Below, in pieces: positions 10 to 5,390 of a DNA stretch of 36,360 bases. The DNA comes from Bryobacterales bacterium. Lineage in GTDB: Bacteria; Acidobacteriota; Terriglobia; Bryobacterales; Bryobacteraceae. Position 1 is the first letter of the stretch, and every line of letters begins with the position of its first letter. The notes beneath the pieces were generated by a model, which saw only the letters and a list, made by a program, of their open reading frames with translations, made no database searches and was not told the origin of the DNA. The stretch covers positions 1 to 36,360 of the forward strand of contig PMSX01000257.1 of NCBI GenBank assembly GCA_003167495.1, read 5' to 3'. Both the position numbers and the translations under genes were made by a program.

Positions 10-1467
10 TTAGCGCTTATGGCACATGGACCCCTGCAAACGGACCGGGCGTTGGAGGGAAGGCGTGGCGCAGAAAAATTCTCCCGCCTTTAGTTGCCCC
101 GGGTTCAACCCGCTGAGGCCGCGCTGCTCCATGGCTTCCTGGATGAACTTAACGACCTGCGTGGTGTTTGCCGTGCCAAAGATCTGAGTGGCGAAGTTGG
201 CCGTCGCATTATAGTCCAGGTCCTTTGGATTTTGTGTCGCCAAGAGTAGCCCAAGCCCGTACTTACGCGCCTGCTGTGCTAACAACATCAGTGCCGGCTT
301 CGATTCGGCATTGTTCCTGGGAAGAAAGGGTGCCGCTTCATCAAGGACAAGCAGGCCCCTCACAGATGAACGGGCCTGCGATGGGTTCCTGCGAATCCAA
401 TTGAACAATACGCTGGCCAACTGCCCGATGAATCGCGCCTGTGCGCTGACATCCGACATGGCGAACAAGCTAACAACGGAAACGCGCGGCCGTGCAGAAT
501 TGACTCCGAACAAAACGGCAGGGTCGAGGTCTTCGCCTTGTCCACCGTAGAGTGGATCGGCCACCCAGGTGGCTTGGATTCGATCAGCCATGCCAGCGGC
601 AAGCTTTCGTTCGTTCTGATAGCCCTGGAATGCTTCGGCCGGTAAGTCGCGCAATCCTGCAATCAGTCGCTCCAACTCGCTCCCGGAATGTTGCGGCTGC
701 CGCGTCAGCCACTCCACAACTTTCTTGAGTATCGCTTTTTCCACGGTAGGGTTCTTTTTCTGAACCGCGAGAGGCAGCAGTCCCGCGATGGCAACCTCTA
801 TCACTTGTTCGCGGTCGTAAGGCTCGGCGGAAGGACCACTCAAGTTGGGCAGCGGAGCCAGTTTCATAGTTCTGCCGCCAGCGTGCCCTGGTGTCCAGAT
901 ACACACATCGACGTTCTTGAAATAATCCTCCGCCAGTTGCGCGTCGCTTTCAGTCCACGACGAAGGAGGGCTCGCCCATCTGTCACCCAGCATCGACAGA
1001 TCCTTCGCTGTGTCGATGACAATCGATGAAATTCCGCACATCGCGGCCTCTTCCACCAATCGCTTGACAAAAACCGTCTTACCCCCACCCGATCCTGCCC
1101 GAAGAATCACATGCTGCGTCAGATTGACAAGCGGAAGATAGACCGGATCGCCGAGGGTTCCCCCCTCCAGACGTGAGCCAAGCGTGACCTGGACGCGAAG
1201 ATCTCGCTGTGCTTCGGCCTTATCCGCGGTAGGTCGCCCTTGGGCCTTAGCATCCGCAGCCGCTCCATCGGACTCAACTTCGTGCTCGCTGCCTTCTTGC
1301 CGGTTGCCATTCGGCGCGCTTTCAGTATGCAAAACCTCCTGCCAAGTGGGTACTAATTCTCGCAACAACGTTGTCTTGCTGAGCGGCCGGCTCCTCAAAA
1401 GCCAGGTTTTCAAATTGCGAATCGCCGCATTTCGATAACGCGACCACAGCAGCCAAAGTTTGCACAT
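10..1467 (-). CDS. HerA-like (DUF87) P-loop ATPase; possibly the C-terminal half of a broken AAA-HerA fusion
   Basis: A HerA/FtsK-superfamily ATPase, a family of ring-forming DNA translocases that often work with nucleases in repair and anti-phage defence. In the 485-residue frame the P-loop is AGSGGGKT at 124-131, Walker B is GLLVLDEA at 371-378, and a sensor-like stretch ATQNPKDLDY lies at 410-419. Residues 50-95 are a polar, low-complexity linker. The start is doubtful: no good start codon with a well-spaced ribosome site is visible, and the first 48 codons overlap the upstream ATPase in another frame. An AGGAGG sits only 2 nt before an in-frame TTG near 1330. The early segment TWLLRSRPLSKTTLLREL looks like genuine protein and reads as a natural continuation of the upstream ATPase, so the two may once have been one polypeptide. 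The ATPase core itself is intact. Family assignment is confident; the role in defence is inference. Confidence 0.8.
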   Translation of the reverse strand: MCKLWLLWSRYRNAAIRNLKTWLLRSRPLSKTTLLRELVPTWQEVLHTESAPNGNRQEGSEHEVESDGAAADAKAQGRPTADKAEAQRDLRVQVTLGSRLEGGTLGDPVYLPLVNLTQHVILRAGSGGGKTVFVKRLVEEAAMCGISSIVIDTAKDLSMLGDRWASPPSSWTESDAQLAEDYFKNVDVCIWTPGHAGGRTMKLAPLPNLSGPSAEPYDREQVIEVAIAGLLPLAVQKKNPTVEKAILKKVVEWLTRQPQHSGSELERLIAGLRDLPAEAFQGYQNERKLAAGMADRIQATWVADPLYGGQGEDLDPAVLFGVNSARPRVSVVSLFAMSDVSAQARFIGQLASVLFNWIRRNPSQARSSVRGLLVLDEAAPFLPRNNAESKPALMLLAQQARKYGLGLLLATQNPKDLDYNATANFATQIFGTANTTQVVKFIQEAMEQRGLSGLNPGQLKAGEFFCATPSLQRPVRLQGSMCHKR

Positions 1468-3162
1468 CGTGGGCGGTAATAGGGAGGAACTCTGCTCCGC
1501 ATTCTTCGATGGCTCGTTTCACAAGTTTAACGGTTTCCGCCCCCGAAGGAGGCGGCGCATTCCGCAGCAAAAACAGCCGCCGGCCGTCCAGCTTCTCAGA
1601 CATTCCAGAGGTGGTCAGAGCGGCGCTCAGCCGGACCTGGAAGGCTCTCGCGTTCGTCTTTTGTAGAATTCGAACGCAAACATGTTCCTCCCGGTCGCCT
1701 TCCACCCTGAAGATTCGGCGCATCCGTAAATGCAGGCTCTCAAACTGCCTAGTCTCGTGAAAGTCGGCATCTACAGCCAAGTCGATATTCGGCTGGGGCG
1801 GCACTTCTAGACGGAATAATCGTGCGGCTTCTCCAAGAATGTCCCCCAATTGGTCTTCGCCATCCTGATCGAGTAACCTGCGCGTGTCGACAGCGGCAAA
1901 CTCTTGGCTAAAACGGCGGTCGAGCTCAGACAGGTCAGGGCCCCCATTGATCGCCGGACCAAAGTCAGAATAGTTTCCCAGCTCCGTCACCTTGCCCGCT
2001 CGCACGCACGCTAGGCGGTGACTGTCGCAGCGATTGAGGATTTCGCGCGGCGTCAGACCCGGAGGGAGCGACTTAAAGAAACCGCGAGCGAAAGGCCAAG
2101 CTGGATAGGTAGGCGTGAAGTTGGCGCGGCGATAGCATTCAGTAAGCCGGCCTTCGACCAAGCCCTGCGGAGTGCCAGGATCACGGATAAGGTCCAGAAG
2201 TTCGATTTCTTCGAAGCGATGCTTAAACGAATCCACGGCGCGCTTTTGTAGTGCGTTCCAACTCGACTCTAGGCACGTTATGATCATGAGAGTTTTAGCA
2301 AACTCCCCTCGAACCGCCATCATGCCGTTCACAACGTCAAACAGAACGTGTAAAGCCTCCTTCATTCGGAGGCTTGTCGTATCCTCAGGATCCGCCAAAT
2401 TATTTTGTGCCACGAACGGATCCAGTTGATCGAAGGCCAGCAGCGTGGGACCAGATAGACTGAGGAACCAGGCAAGATCCGTGGCCACTCTCTTAGCAGA
2501 ATTAGGCCCGGACAAGTAGATTTTCTTCGACTCATCGTCGATCTGCTCAATGCCTTGCAGAAATGAATACGCGCGCTCTGACAAGTCGATATCTTCGGAT
2601 TCGAGCTATAAGAGTGCTCGGAACACCCGTGGGCGCGTTGTTAAATCGCGGCCATAAATTGGGCGGAGCGATGAGATGAGTTCATTAGCGAATGAGACAA
2701 GTTCCTCGCGTGGCAGAGATCGGCTGCCATTGAGGACCGCAGTGACATCATGCGCTCCATTGCCCTTGCTGAACAGAACTTTTAGGATACGTAGGAGCTG
2801 AGGCACTTCGTTCATGGACTTCCGAAGGCTTTGCAGATAGTGCATTGCCAGGAGCGGCCAGAACTCACGGACATCGGTCAAATCGCTGAGCACAAAGTTA
2901 GCTCCCTGCCGGCCGGCTTCTCGCCGGATCTCACCCAGCAGATGCGTCTTTCCGGAACCGGCGGGCCTACAAGACAGAGTCCGCGTGGGTTGATTCCGTC
3001 CTCGAGATTCCTGGCGCGCTGTAAAGTGTCCGCGAATCGCTCTAGCGCGCGCCGCTGCAAGGGAAGGTGATCGGCGGGACGATCCATCCACACCTGTTGA
3101 AGTTCGAACACGCTGTGGAACTCAACACGGCTAAACGCCGAAAAGGCCGCATCTGTCGTCAT
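1322..3162 (-). pseudogene. AAA-type P-loop ATPase broken by a frameshift and a stop codon
   Basis: Three minus-strand pieces form one ATPase of about 613 residues. The first piece starts with ATG at 3162 and runs into GLCLVGPP, after which the frame is lost. One extra G near 2958 would restore the P-loop GPPGSGKTHLL, whose second half is found in the next frame. That frame runs to TAG at 2608-2606. The codons after it continue in the same frame (LESEDIDLSERAYSF) into a third piece with Walker B LLAFDQLDPF, and then to 1322. Walker A and Walker B therefore now lie on separate open frames. The start overlaps the stop of the upstream small gene (ATGA), which indicates translational coupling. 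The family (AAA/STAND-like NTPase) rests on the two Walker motifs only. Loss of function is inferred; the indel could be a sequencing error, but the TAG would have to be a separate substitution. Confidence 0.75.
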
Positions 3163-3787
3163 TTTGGTTCGTGGTGTAGGTAGATCACGTGACGTCGGCG
3201 GTCTGCAACCTGAAACGCAGCACGCTCGTCCTCTTCATCCCGGCTCATCGGGTCGTCTTCCGGATAGAAATCTGCTTCGCCCGAACCAATCAGCTCGGCG
3301 AAGGCGCCGTCCTGCGTTTCACGGTCAAATGATAAGCGCTTACGAAGATCCTTCAATAGAATTCGGCTCTTGTAAGAGCCTCCGGACAGCGCAAGATAAG
3401 CGTGGCGAACGGTCTCCACTGCATCTGAAACATTCGCAACTGCTGGCTCTATCGTGGCTTTAAGAAAACCCTCGAACGAAAGATTATTCGCTGCCAGGAA
3501 CGCCGCTTGGCGCGAACTAGATCGAGTACCAAGCAGACAGCCTTTGCGCTTCCCTTCAGTTCCGCGTACAAATGCTCACCAGCCCAGCGAACGGATTCTG
3601 CGTTTGCCTCCAATTCTCGCGATCTCCCCTTGCGCGTAAGCTTCAGCAGGCCGGTTTGTTCCGTAAGGCTGTCAAGCGTCGCGATAGACATCTTCGTCAA
3701 GCCGAGCTGTGACTTAGTGAATGATTTACCGAATAACGCCGCATAAAGTACAAGGCATTTGTAATCTGGATCAAGTTCTTTAGACAT
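3159..3787 (-). pseudogene. Small operon protein of unknown function, frameshifted
   Basis: The first frame (ATG at 3787, 112 codons) begins like a small winged-helix-type protein (KSQLGLTKMSIATLDSLTEQ), then becomes Arg/Lys-rich and stops at 3449. From about 3516 the neighbouring frame reads smoothly without a stop through SRQAAFLAANNLSFEGFLKA and SDAVETVRHAYLALSGGSYK to a stop at 3159. One lost base around 3510-3530 explains both pieces, giving an intact product of about 210 residues. The start overlaps the end of the DUF559 gene by 8 bp, and the stop overlaps the ATPase start as ATGA, so it belongs to the same operon. The C-terminal half is acidic. I do not recognise a family with certainty. 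The helix-turn-helix idea for the N-terminus is a guess from pattern alone. Confidence 0.65.
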
Positions 3788-4592
3788 GAAATAGCTTCTT
3801 CCTGAGGTGGACGTAGCGTCGAATTTTCTGAACCACCAGACCTACGTCCTGGGAGACTTCCTGATCGGTCATTCGGAGCGTCACGTACCCCGAAGCACCT
3901 GTCTCATAGTCTCGTTGTCGATCATCGACGAAACTCTCAGGGCTTGAATGAAAGTGATAGCTGTCAATCTCTACGATGAACCGTCCCGCCCGCCACACAA
4001 AGTCTACCCGGGGCCTCGTTTGAAATACCGTTAGTAGCATGAGGTTCGGCTCAAACAGGCCCCGCAGATCCGGATCGCGCTCCAAATATGTCGCCAAGGT
4101 CTCCTCCACCGTGCTCTTCGGTACGGCGCGTTTCTGCGGCTTGGTGTCTGTTGCTCCATGGACGATCATCGTTGGTAGGCGAGAGACCCTGTCTATCCAC
4201 TCAGCCACCGTTCCTGCGTTCCGAATGCCTGTTACATCCAACAGTGGCACTACCCCTATGAAAACGCGTTCACACCCGTGATCCACCCATCGGATCAAGC
4301 GGTCAACATTTGTCTCCGCCGAATAGCCGCTAGGCAGCGGTGGCTGATTCAATGCGAGCATTGCCTGAGCAGCTTCGAGCCACTTATCGCGCGGCCTGGG
4401 GTTGATATTTCGCAATTGTCGTTCCAGAACATGACGGGCTAGCGCCAGCGTGAAATCGTCAATCGCGTGATTGGCAGCGGGAAACTGCGCGTAGATAGCA
4501 CCGATAGCCGAACCGCGTCCGATTTGTTCGCTAACAAAGCCGATCACGTCAGGCTGCTCGAATATCTCTATAGAGCCTCCACCCGTCATCAT
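3780..4592 (-). CDS. DUF559-like PD-(D/E)XK nuclease
   Basis: The C-terminal third matches the DUF559/Vsr-like endonuclease fold: RPRVDFVW with D197, then FIVEIDSYHFH with E208 and D210, then an Arg-rich helix (DDRQRDYE) and a final strand YVTLRMTDQEV. This is the usual order of a metal-dependent PD-(D/E)XK nuclease core. The first 160 residues are not assigned to a known domain. The gene is the first of the leftward operon (DUF559, small protein, AAA ATPase, HerA). A GGGAGG ribosome site lies 2 nt before ATG 4592 and 5 nt before the adjacent in-frame ATG 4589, so 4589 may be the true start. Unlike its neighbours it is intact. The likely role, by family and neighbourhood, is cutting DNA for an NTPase-driven restriction or defence module; substrate unknown. 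Confidence 0.75.
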   Translation of the reverse strand: MMTGGGSIEIFEQPDVIGFVSEQIGRGSAIGAIYAQFPAANHAIDDFTLALARHVLERQLRNINPRPRDKWLEAAQAMLALNQPPLPSGYSAETNVDRLIRWVDHGCERVFIGVVPLLDVTGIRNAGTVAEWIDRVSRLPTMIVHGATDTKPQKRAVPKSTVEETLATYLERDPDLRGLFEPNLMLLTVFQTRPRVDFVWRAGRFIVEIDSYHFHSSPESFVDDRQRDYETGASGYVTLRMTDQEVSQDVGLVVQKIRRYVHLRKKLFHV

Positions 4593-4685: not shown

Positions 4686-5390
4686 TCTCGACACGGTCGA
4701 ATAGGAGGGTGTTCCTTATCATGTAACCCAACGCGGCAACGGGCGCCAACAAGTCTTCTTTGAGGAACGAGACCATCGTCTTGTATTTGGATCTCTTCGG
4801 CAGTTACTGCAAGGAGGCAGGGCTGCACGTTTGGCCGACTGCCTAATGCCCAGCCACGTTCACCTCGTGGTCGTTCCGGAGCGCAGCACCGCTATGGCCC
4901 ACGCGCTGGGAAGGACGCACGCCGATTTCGCCCGTTACTGCAACTTGCGAAAGAGAGCATGCGGCCATGTGTGGCAGGCTCGCTATTACTCAACGCCCCT
5001 AGACGGCACACATCTCTGGCAGGCCATGGCCTATGTCGAACGCAACCCGGTTCGTGCACACTTGGCGGCACAAGCCGAGCCGCATGCTTGGTCGAGCGCA
5101 CGAGTGCGGTTAGCGGGTGCAGACGGCGCGGGCTTAGTTGATCTGACCCCGTGGCGAATAGAGTACGATTGGCCGCGATGGAAAAGGTGCTGAACACCAG
5201 CATTGGCGAGGAAGCGTTCGGCCAGCGACTGCAGGAAGCCAGCCGTCGCGGTCGCCCGTTTGGTGGCGAACGGTTTATTGAAGACTTGGAGAAGCGCTGC
5301 GGGCGAAGATTACGCGCTCTGCCGGTTGGACGCCCGAAGAAGGCAAGCAAAGAGGAGAAGGATCAGCTGGCGTTTGGATTTGATATTTGA
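4686..5390 (+). pseudogene. REP-associated (Y1/HUH, IS200-like) transposase, multiply frameshifted
   Basis: Pieces in successive frames rebuild one typical RAYT. VPYHVTQRGNGRQQVFFEER begins at 4711, followed by YLDLFGSYCKEAGLHVW from 4784. ADCLMPSHVHLVVVP follows in the long piece starting at 4831, and the C-terminus VLNTSIGEEAFGQRLQEA ends at 5390. The HUH motif (HVH in PSHVHL) and the catalytic Tyr region (FARYCN) are both present. Apparent indels are an extra base near 4710 and near 4783, a lost G at the TGG/GCC join near 4834, and a lost base near 5182. No frame covers the whole protein, so it should be inactive. RAYTs are usually single-copy domesticated transposases that act on REP palindromes. 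It sits beside the decaying operon on the opposite strand, overlapping its upstream region. Confidence 0.85.

What the first reader, a model, noticed from the sequence alone, without database searches (positions are those of the whole stretch)
10..4592. Candidate undescribed DUF559 nuclease - small protein - AAA ATPase - HerA operon
Four overlapping minus-strand genes combine a PD-(D/E)XK nuclease, an unknown acidic protein, a Walker-type ATPase and a HerA-like translocase. The nuclease plus HerA logic is that of anti-phage or DNA-processing systems, but I cannot match this gene order to a named system (it is not a Wadjet, BREX or Dnd layout that I can recognise). The local copy is damaged; intact relatives would show the true architecture.
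Basis: partly seen in the sequence, partly recalled or inferred. Interest (0 to 1): 0.7.

Follow-up and report, generated by a model that had tools for sequence, protein, structure and literature searches.

The report
Broken copy of HerA defence operon
The window holds a decayed copy of a widespread but apparently unnamed bacterial gene cassette, in which a DNA-pumping motor and a small probable DNA-binding protein are paired with a nuclease that, in other bacteria, is swapped for other suspected defence proteins.

Summary
The minus-strand block 10-4592 is a three-gene operon: a DUF559 nuclease, a ~220-aa winged-helix-like protein, and ONE ~1085-aa protein that fuses an AAA+-like ATPase to a HerA translocase. 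Frame changes and a stop make it look like four or more genes; this copy is decayed. Intact relatives are abundant: 293 were confirmed in one genome scan (a lower bound) and the best 80 loci were examined. In the 78 loci not cut there, the small gene directly precedes the ATPase-HerA gene. The partner slot varies by clade: DUF559 (52 of 80), TIR plus KGGVGR ATPase (8), AIPR (5), a WD40 giant with Trypco1 (7, weaker link), TPR (1), none seen (4), cut (3). On a tree these labels need 8 changes, about four of them partner swaps. I read it as a counter-invader system: a constant sensor/translocase core with interchangeable effectors. The closest described kind is the 'HerA/FtsK capture systems' of Rakesh et al. 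2024; PADLOC and NCBIfam name no system for it (best model mad8). The HerA and DUF559 domains and the gene pairing are shown; the REase-like middle domain, the trigger and any anti-phage action are inferred.

The parts
3780..4592 (-). DUF559 nuclease gene (270 aa ORF). C-terminal PD-(D/E)XK-type domain; the conserved D, E-x-D and DxxRD positions are kept, but the G after E-x-D is S and the following H is displaced by one residue; N-terminal part shorter than the ~350 aa of relatives
   Evidence: PF04480 27.3 bits; alignment with three relatives; tblastn 41% over relative residues 231-343, E 3e-22; sequence printed
3159..3787 (-). small winged-helix-like gene, broken: N-terminal piece 3449-3787, C-terminal piece 3159-3419, frame change between 3524 and 3503
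   Evidence: two collinear tblastn pieces in frames -3 and -2 against one G320 protein, joint E 2e-14; alignment
10..3162 (-). one gene for an AAA+-like ATPase fused to HerA, broken by frame changes at ~2962-2965 and inside 1355-1425 and by an in-frame TAG at 2606-2608; C-terminus cut short near the contig end
   Evidence: intact fused relatives
1322..3162 (-). ATPase half (AAA+-like part plus a middle domain); P-loop at ~2940-2975, DQLD motif kept
22..1146 (-). HerA translocase half, with Walker A (GSGGGKT), Walker B (LDEA) and the RKYGLG...ATQ motif kept
   Evidence: PF01935 23.2 bits; tblastn 39% identity, E 1e-62

Best explanation
The operon is a decayed copy of a modular counter-invader system. 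Its core is two coupled genes: a small winged-helix-like protein (probable DNA sensor) and a fused AAA+-like ATPase-HerA translocase (probable hexameric DNA motor). The core recognises some feature of incoming or replicating foreign DNA and, using ATP, delivers DNA to or switches on a partner. In the window's branch the partner is a DUF559 nuclease that cuts the DNA; in other branches it is a TIR protein with a KGGVGR ATPase, an AIPR protein, or possibly a WD40 giant, whose known relatives point to cell-level shutdown. Shown here: domains, gene order, tight spacing, partner swapping. Inferred: the recognition step, the motor state, DNA delivery and any anti-phage or anti-plasmid effect.
For: In 79 of 79 ATPase-HerA copies with upstream sequence (78 loci) the small gene adjoins; spacing -3 bp in 53, 0 in 24, 3 in one, 14 in one (my script preferred start codons near the neighbour's stop, so the exact spacing is partly by construction). 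Partner slot of the 80: DUF559 52, TIR+KGGVGR 8, WD40 giant+Trypco1 7, AIPR downstream 5, TPR 1, none seen 4, cut 3. DUF559 lies -67 to +17 bp from the small gene in 52 of 52; KGGVGR -3 to +28 bp in 8 of 8; AIPR -66 to +34 bp in 5 of 5. In 1269 flank proteins of 83 loci the four alternative-partner profiles hit only their own slot, save 2 TIR hits in L075; the only DUF559-like flank hit is a weak one in L086 (25.6 bits). On the tree all labels need 8 changes ('none' and 'cut' counted as labels) against a shuffled mean of 26.2; TIR and AIPR types are each one supported clade. One strain has two loci with different partners (L072 DUF559, L093 AIPR). Motifs in 81 full-length proteins: ATPase Walker A 80, DQxD 79, HerA Walker A 77, DEAQ 81, RKYGLG..AT 81. 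The model matches HerA of HerA-NurA, SIR2-HerA and DUF4297-HerA, best E 5e-13, TM by target 0.43. The DUF559 profile finds 3hrl by sequence, E 5e-14, and its model domain fits 3hrl at TM 0.85 (Foldseek E 0.016).
Against: No experiment. No relative in phage records or IMG/VR (one scan). Three plasmid-collection records, of which one is 11.85 Mb and one carries ribosomal protein genes, so both are probably chromosomal. Partners follow host clades and some positions are syntenic, so part of the pattern is vertical. The WD40 gene is divergent and 485-721 bp away, so its link is weak. Four loci have no obvious partner, and G320 has none. No shared docking domain among partners was found. A strict DUF559 motif pattern fits 44 of 54 proteins.
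Confidence: 0.7

Rival explanations
1. A chromosomal DNA-end processing or repair machine, working like archaeal HerA-NurA, with DUF559 in the place of NurA.
For: HerA plus nuclease gene pairing; best fold match is HerA of the HerA-NurA complex; shared flanking genes in a group of Micromonospora loci.
Against: The nuclease is replaced by TIR, AIPR or other proteins. Rare in the window's phylum: with the window's ATPase piece as query, of 396 genomes only the window's and G320 hold real relatives; two further hits are shadow frames of sigma factor genes. Swapping of the acting enzyme is not expected of housekeeping repair.
Confidence: 0.14
2. The core is the functional unit (for example DNA segregation or transfer control), and partners are unrelated neighbours kept by synteny.
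For: Partners cluster by clade; the WD40 gene is divergent; four loci and G320 have no partner.
Against: Tight same-strand spacing of DUF559, KGGVGR and AIPR to the core in many genera; one strain with two loci and two partners.
Confidence: 0.1
3. A remnant of a mobile element's own transfer machinery (coupling-protein-like ATPase).
For: HerA is related to conjugation ATPases (TrwB among fold matches); an IS200-like transposase fragment lies beside the window copy.
Against: No match in phages or IMG/VR; only one plausible plasmid record. Flank genes were clustered but not annotated for transfer genes, so this was not tested directly.
Confidence: 0.06

Closest known systems
HerA/FtsK capture systems (Rakesh, Aravind, Krishnan 2024, PMC10853773; section 22 read)
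   Same: HerA/FtsK coupled to an Orc/CDC6-type AAA+ ATPase, an active REase and a wHTH; a REase-like middle domain after the AAA+ is suggested here by topology only
   Different: Here ATPase and HerA are one polypeptide with the small protein separate; the REase is DUF559 (not named in the main text); partners TIR+KGGVGR, AIPR and perhaps a WD40 giant replace it. Figure 7 and supplements were not available, so exact overlap is unknown
SIR2-HerA and DUF4297-HerA anti-phage complexes
   Same: HerA motor with a separate effector gene; among the top fold matches
   Different: No SIR2 or DUF4297 among the representative partners scanned; extra ATPase fused to HerA; extra small protein
MADS (mad1-mad8)
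   Same: Best PADLOC model for the HerA half is mad8, 54.8-77.4 bits
   Different: No other mad model matched the operon proteins scanned
HerA-NurA
   Same: HerA plus nuclease
   Different: DUF559 (3hrl-like) is not a NurA; ATPase and small protein have no counterpart there (recalled)
DndFGH / Dpt
   Same: HerA/FtsK domain with REase and wHTH partners (PMC10853773, passages)
   Different: DndH is one multi-domain protein (PADLOC model of 1715 positions); only 13.3 bits to it here

Membership tests
HerA/FtsK capture systems | HerA/FtsK translocase domain | tested here: met
   PF01935 37.6 bits over a cut-off of 23.2 in L007; fold match E 5e-13; motifs in 77-81 of 81
HerA/FtsK capture systems | coupled Orc/CDC6-family AAA+ ATPase | tested here: inconclusive
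   P-loop and AAA_16 hit just under cut-off, 32.0 against 32.6; alpha/beta ATPase-like region in the model; Orc versus STAND not resolved
HerA/FtsK capture systems | inactive REase domain between AAA+ and a C-terminal wHTH | tested here: inconclusive
   model residues 420-516 run helix-strand-strand-strand-helix-strand, and no D..(D/E)xK motif is conserved there; no wHTH seen after it; the domain could not be searched alone
HerA/FtsK capture systems | REase gene with a conserved catalytic motif | tested here: met
   DUF559 in 52 of 80 loci; strict motif in 44 of 54 proteins. Absent or replaced in the other 25 uncut loci; activity not tested
HerA/FtsK capture systems | REase from one of the authors' two families (one AbiJ-like) | not testable with these tools
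   families are defined in figure and supplements that were not available
HerA/FtsK capture systems | wHTH protein | tested here: inconclusive
   winged-helix PF22665 below cut-off in 3 of 5 intact small proteins scanned: L007 E 0.0011, L024 0.0032, L041 0.029; none in L052, L081. MarR-family ZitR E 0.005 among chance calmodulin hits
HerA/FtsK capture systems | HerA domain in the authors' clades 2, 4 or 5 | not tested
   their alignment and figure were not available
MADS | genes mad1 to mad8 together | tested here: not met
   only mad8 matches; no other mad model for the window's pieces or for the L007, L008, L009 proteins scanned
SIR2-HerA / DUF4297-HerA | SIR2 or DUF4297 partner gene | tested here: not met
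   representative partners are DUF559, TIR, KGGVGR ATPase, AIPR, WD40, TPR
DndFGH | DndH multi-domain protein with DndF and DndG | tested here: not met
   13.3 bits to DndH only, no DndF or DndG
BREX / Wadjet | PglZ, PglX, BrxC or JetABCD | tested here: not met
   no such PADLOC hit for the operon proteins scanned

The most novel reading that the evidence does not exclude
A large, unnamed family of immune systems in Actinomycetota and Methylobacteriaceae in which one constant DNA-sensing motor (small winged-helix-like protein plus fused AAA+-HerA) licenses mechanistically unrelated effectors (DNA cutting, TIR, AIPR, perhaps proteolysis), so that one sensor has been re-armed several times in evolution.
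Probability: 0.5. Interest if true: 0.78.

Novelty: new variant of a known kind. Interest (0 to 1): 0.6.

Why it matters
If right, the same motor core works with at least three unrelated partner types that lie tightly beside it. That makes one question directly testable by swapping partners: does HerA in defence act as a DNA feeder for a nuclease, or as a sensor that triggers any effector? It also gives boundaries to a common actinobacterial cassette that PADLOC and NCBIfam do not name as a system.

Tried and rejected
Rejected: four separate genes (one ORF in 77 of 80 loci, three cut). Rejected: hits in G272 and G364 (shadow frames of sigma factor genes). Rejected: MADS, BREX, Wadjet, Dnd, SIR2-HerA membership. 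Rejected as relatives: 33 of 149 phylum genomes match only within the HerA half, never the ATPase part. No shared docking domain between partner types (the positive control, DUF559 of Methylobacterium against Actinobacteria, scored 99.9% probability). The N-terminal domain of the DUF559 protein gives only weak P-loop-NTPase-like fold matches, none at E 0.001 or better, so I leave it unnamed. Calmodulin hits of the small protein are taken as chance. One search ran but its comparison table was not parsed; one search repeats it. Several loci (L021, L030, L033 and others) gave more than one profile piece; the longest was used. A spurious inner match in L051 was left out of the spacing count.

Limits: the 80 loci are the best of 293 by similarity to the query, so partner frequencies are biased; partner types were named from scans of representatives and extended by similarity; flank genes were called by a simple GC-position script of mine; the tree is a quick one without bootstrap; only two structure jobs were allowed, so the small protein was not folded.
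Full report
What is there. The minus strand of 10-4592 carries a DUF559 nuclease ORF (3780-4592), two small ORFs (3449-3787 and 3159-3419), an ATPase in pieces and a HerA-like domain. Intact relatives show the true plan. Methylobacterium aquaticum, Nonomuraea gerenzanensis and Tsukamurella tyrosinosolvens records each hold DUF559 (345-366 aa), a 223-235 aa protein, and one 1084-1108 aa protein that starts with an ATPase and ends with HerA. Against these the window copy is broken: the small gene changes frame between 3524 and 3503; the ATPase-HerA gene changes frame at its first P-loop (~2962-2965), has a TAG at 2606-2608 and changes frame again inside 1355-1425. Only one copy was found in the assembly. 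Long neighbouring genes are open, so I favour real decay. The DUF559 ORF keeps the conserved D, E-x-D and DxxRD positions, though the G after E-x-D is S and the next H is shifted by one residue.

How common. They come from Methylobacteriaceae and many actinobacterial families. In the window's own phylum it is rare: with the window's ATPase piece as query, of 396 genomes only the window's and G320; with the profile, of 149 genomes in a second draw only the window's matched over the ATPase part. The window piece groups with G320 (support 94) and, beyond, with Methylobacteriaceae (100), but its branch is long.

Gene order. Local profiles found the small gene beside the ATPase-HerA gene in the 78 of 80 loci not cut there (L026 and L027 begin inside HerA; the small gene of L085 is partial). 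Over 79 copies the spacing is -3 bp in 53, 0 in 24, 3 in one and 14 in one. My script preferred starts near the neighbour's stop, so this exact spacing is partly by construction; the order is not. L031 holds a tandem second copy of the core without DUF559.

Partner swapping. DUF559 stands directly upstream in 52 of 80 loci. In 8 loci the slot holds a TIR protein (TIR_2 over cut-off in the two scanned, L081 and L036; L081 also hits FxsC_Nterm below cut-off) followed by a KGGVGR-type ATPase (NF047398, 152 bits over a cut-off of 90 in L081). In 5 loci an AIPR protein (PF10592, 139 and 158 bits in the two scanned) follows the core directly; one of the five is cut by the contig end. In 7 loci a divergent gene for a very large WD40 protein, whose N-terminus I read by eye as trypsin-like plus a P-loop NTPase, lies upstream; a Trypco1 gene beside it was confirmed in the two scanned (L046, L061). 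One locus has a TPR protein (L080). Four have none I could name (L033, L034, L060, L094; the last two have a divergent PIF1-like helicase). Three are cut. Among 1269 flank proteins from 83 loci the four alternative-partner profiles hit nothing outside their own slots, save two TIR-like hits in L075; a weak DUF559-like hit lies in L086. On the tree the labels need 8 changes, with 'none' and 'cut' counted as labels (shuffled mean 26.2, as low in 0 of 200): TIR (100) and AIPR (99) are single clades, 'none' needs 3. If DUF559 is the older state, as its presence in both the Methylobacteriaceae and the actinobacterial halves suggests, that is four swaps, three apparent losses and one cut row. Micromonospora sp. 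NBRC 107566 has two loci, one with DUF559 (L072) and one with AIPR (L093).

Proteins. The model of the L024 ATPase-HerA protein (pLDDT 83, pTM 0.58) shows an ATPase-like part (36 to about 310), helices to 377, a stretch of helix-strand-strand-strand-helix-strand order (420-516, with further elements to 564), a disordered linker (595-672) and HerA (679-1087). Top fold matches are HerA of HerA-NurA, SIR2-HerA and DUF4297-HerA complexes; the 50 matches listed are HerA or coupling-protein-type chains, so the other parts were not placed by fold. The middle order is that of the REase fold (recalled), and no D..(D/E)xK motif is conserved there, so an inactive REase is possible but unproven. Mean column identity is 45% for ATPase-HerA, 34% for the small protein and 28% for DUF559 (different row sets), in line with faster change of the outer parts.

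Function. The alternative partners carry names from conflict biology: AIPR (abortive infection phage resistance, recalled), TIR, and Trypco1, which was defined in biological-conflict systems (PMC7159879, abstract and passages seen). Together with the tight gene order this supports a counter-invader role. The simplest mechanism: the small protein and ATPase part recognise DNA, HerA moves it or senses its movement, and the partner acts. Whether HerA feeds DNA to DUF559 or merely triggers it is open; TIR and AIPR partners argue for a trigger role at least in those branches. All of this is inference.

Relation to known systems. PADLOC's best model is mad8 (54.8-77.4 bits), with no other MADS model matched. 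NCBIfam models match the window's and L007's operon proteins far below cut-off. The nearest description in print is the Orc/CDC6-coupled branch of the HerA/FtsK capture systems (section 22 of PMC10853773 read; passages), extended to BREX-related capture systems (PMC12839542, passages). DUF559 is not in the main text of either. No paper in the held library has both DUF87 and DUF559; HerA with KGGVGR gave none; HerA with DUF559 and 'defense' gave two, and HerA with AIPR and TIR gave two, all four judged from the listing not to concern this. PMC10482375 (actinobacterial defence), PMC13092281 (DefensePredictor) and PMC12458937 (YprA) do not name HerA or DUF559 in their main text (term look-ups). 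Subscription papers and supplements were not searched, so absence from print is not shown.

Noticed in passing
window 4831-5193 (+): IS200-like (Y1_Tnp, 24.7 bits over a cut-off of 23) transposase fragment, matching only the C-terminal part of the profile, directly beside the DUF559 gene; possible mark of a mobile or decaying region
   Followed up: partly
L009, L031, L041; also L065, L084: In Tsukamurella and two Rhodococcus loci the cassette sits, with other genes in two of them, between rplN and rpsQ inside the ribosomal protein operon; in Williamsia and Kitasatospora loci it adjoins rpsQ. It looks like an insertion hotspot in an essential operon
   Followed up: partly
L031:610-9579: Tandem duplication of the core; the second copy lacks DUF559 and is followed by a 441-aa protein with no relative among the flank proteins
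   Followed up: no
L080:7463-9361: A single locus with a 632-aa protein (weak TPR hits below cut-off) 23 bp upstream of the core; a possible further partner type
   Followed up: no
L012 and L011 (G320): Phylum mate with the two-gene core but no partner gene next to it; the gene appears split over two overlapping contigs
   Followed up: partly
L007:12780-13844 and kin: PAS-domain protein with a possible HTH, its family repeated downstream of the cassette in seven Methylobacterium loci
   Followed up: no
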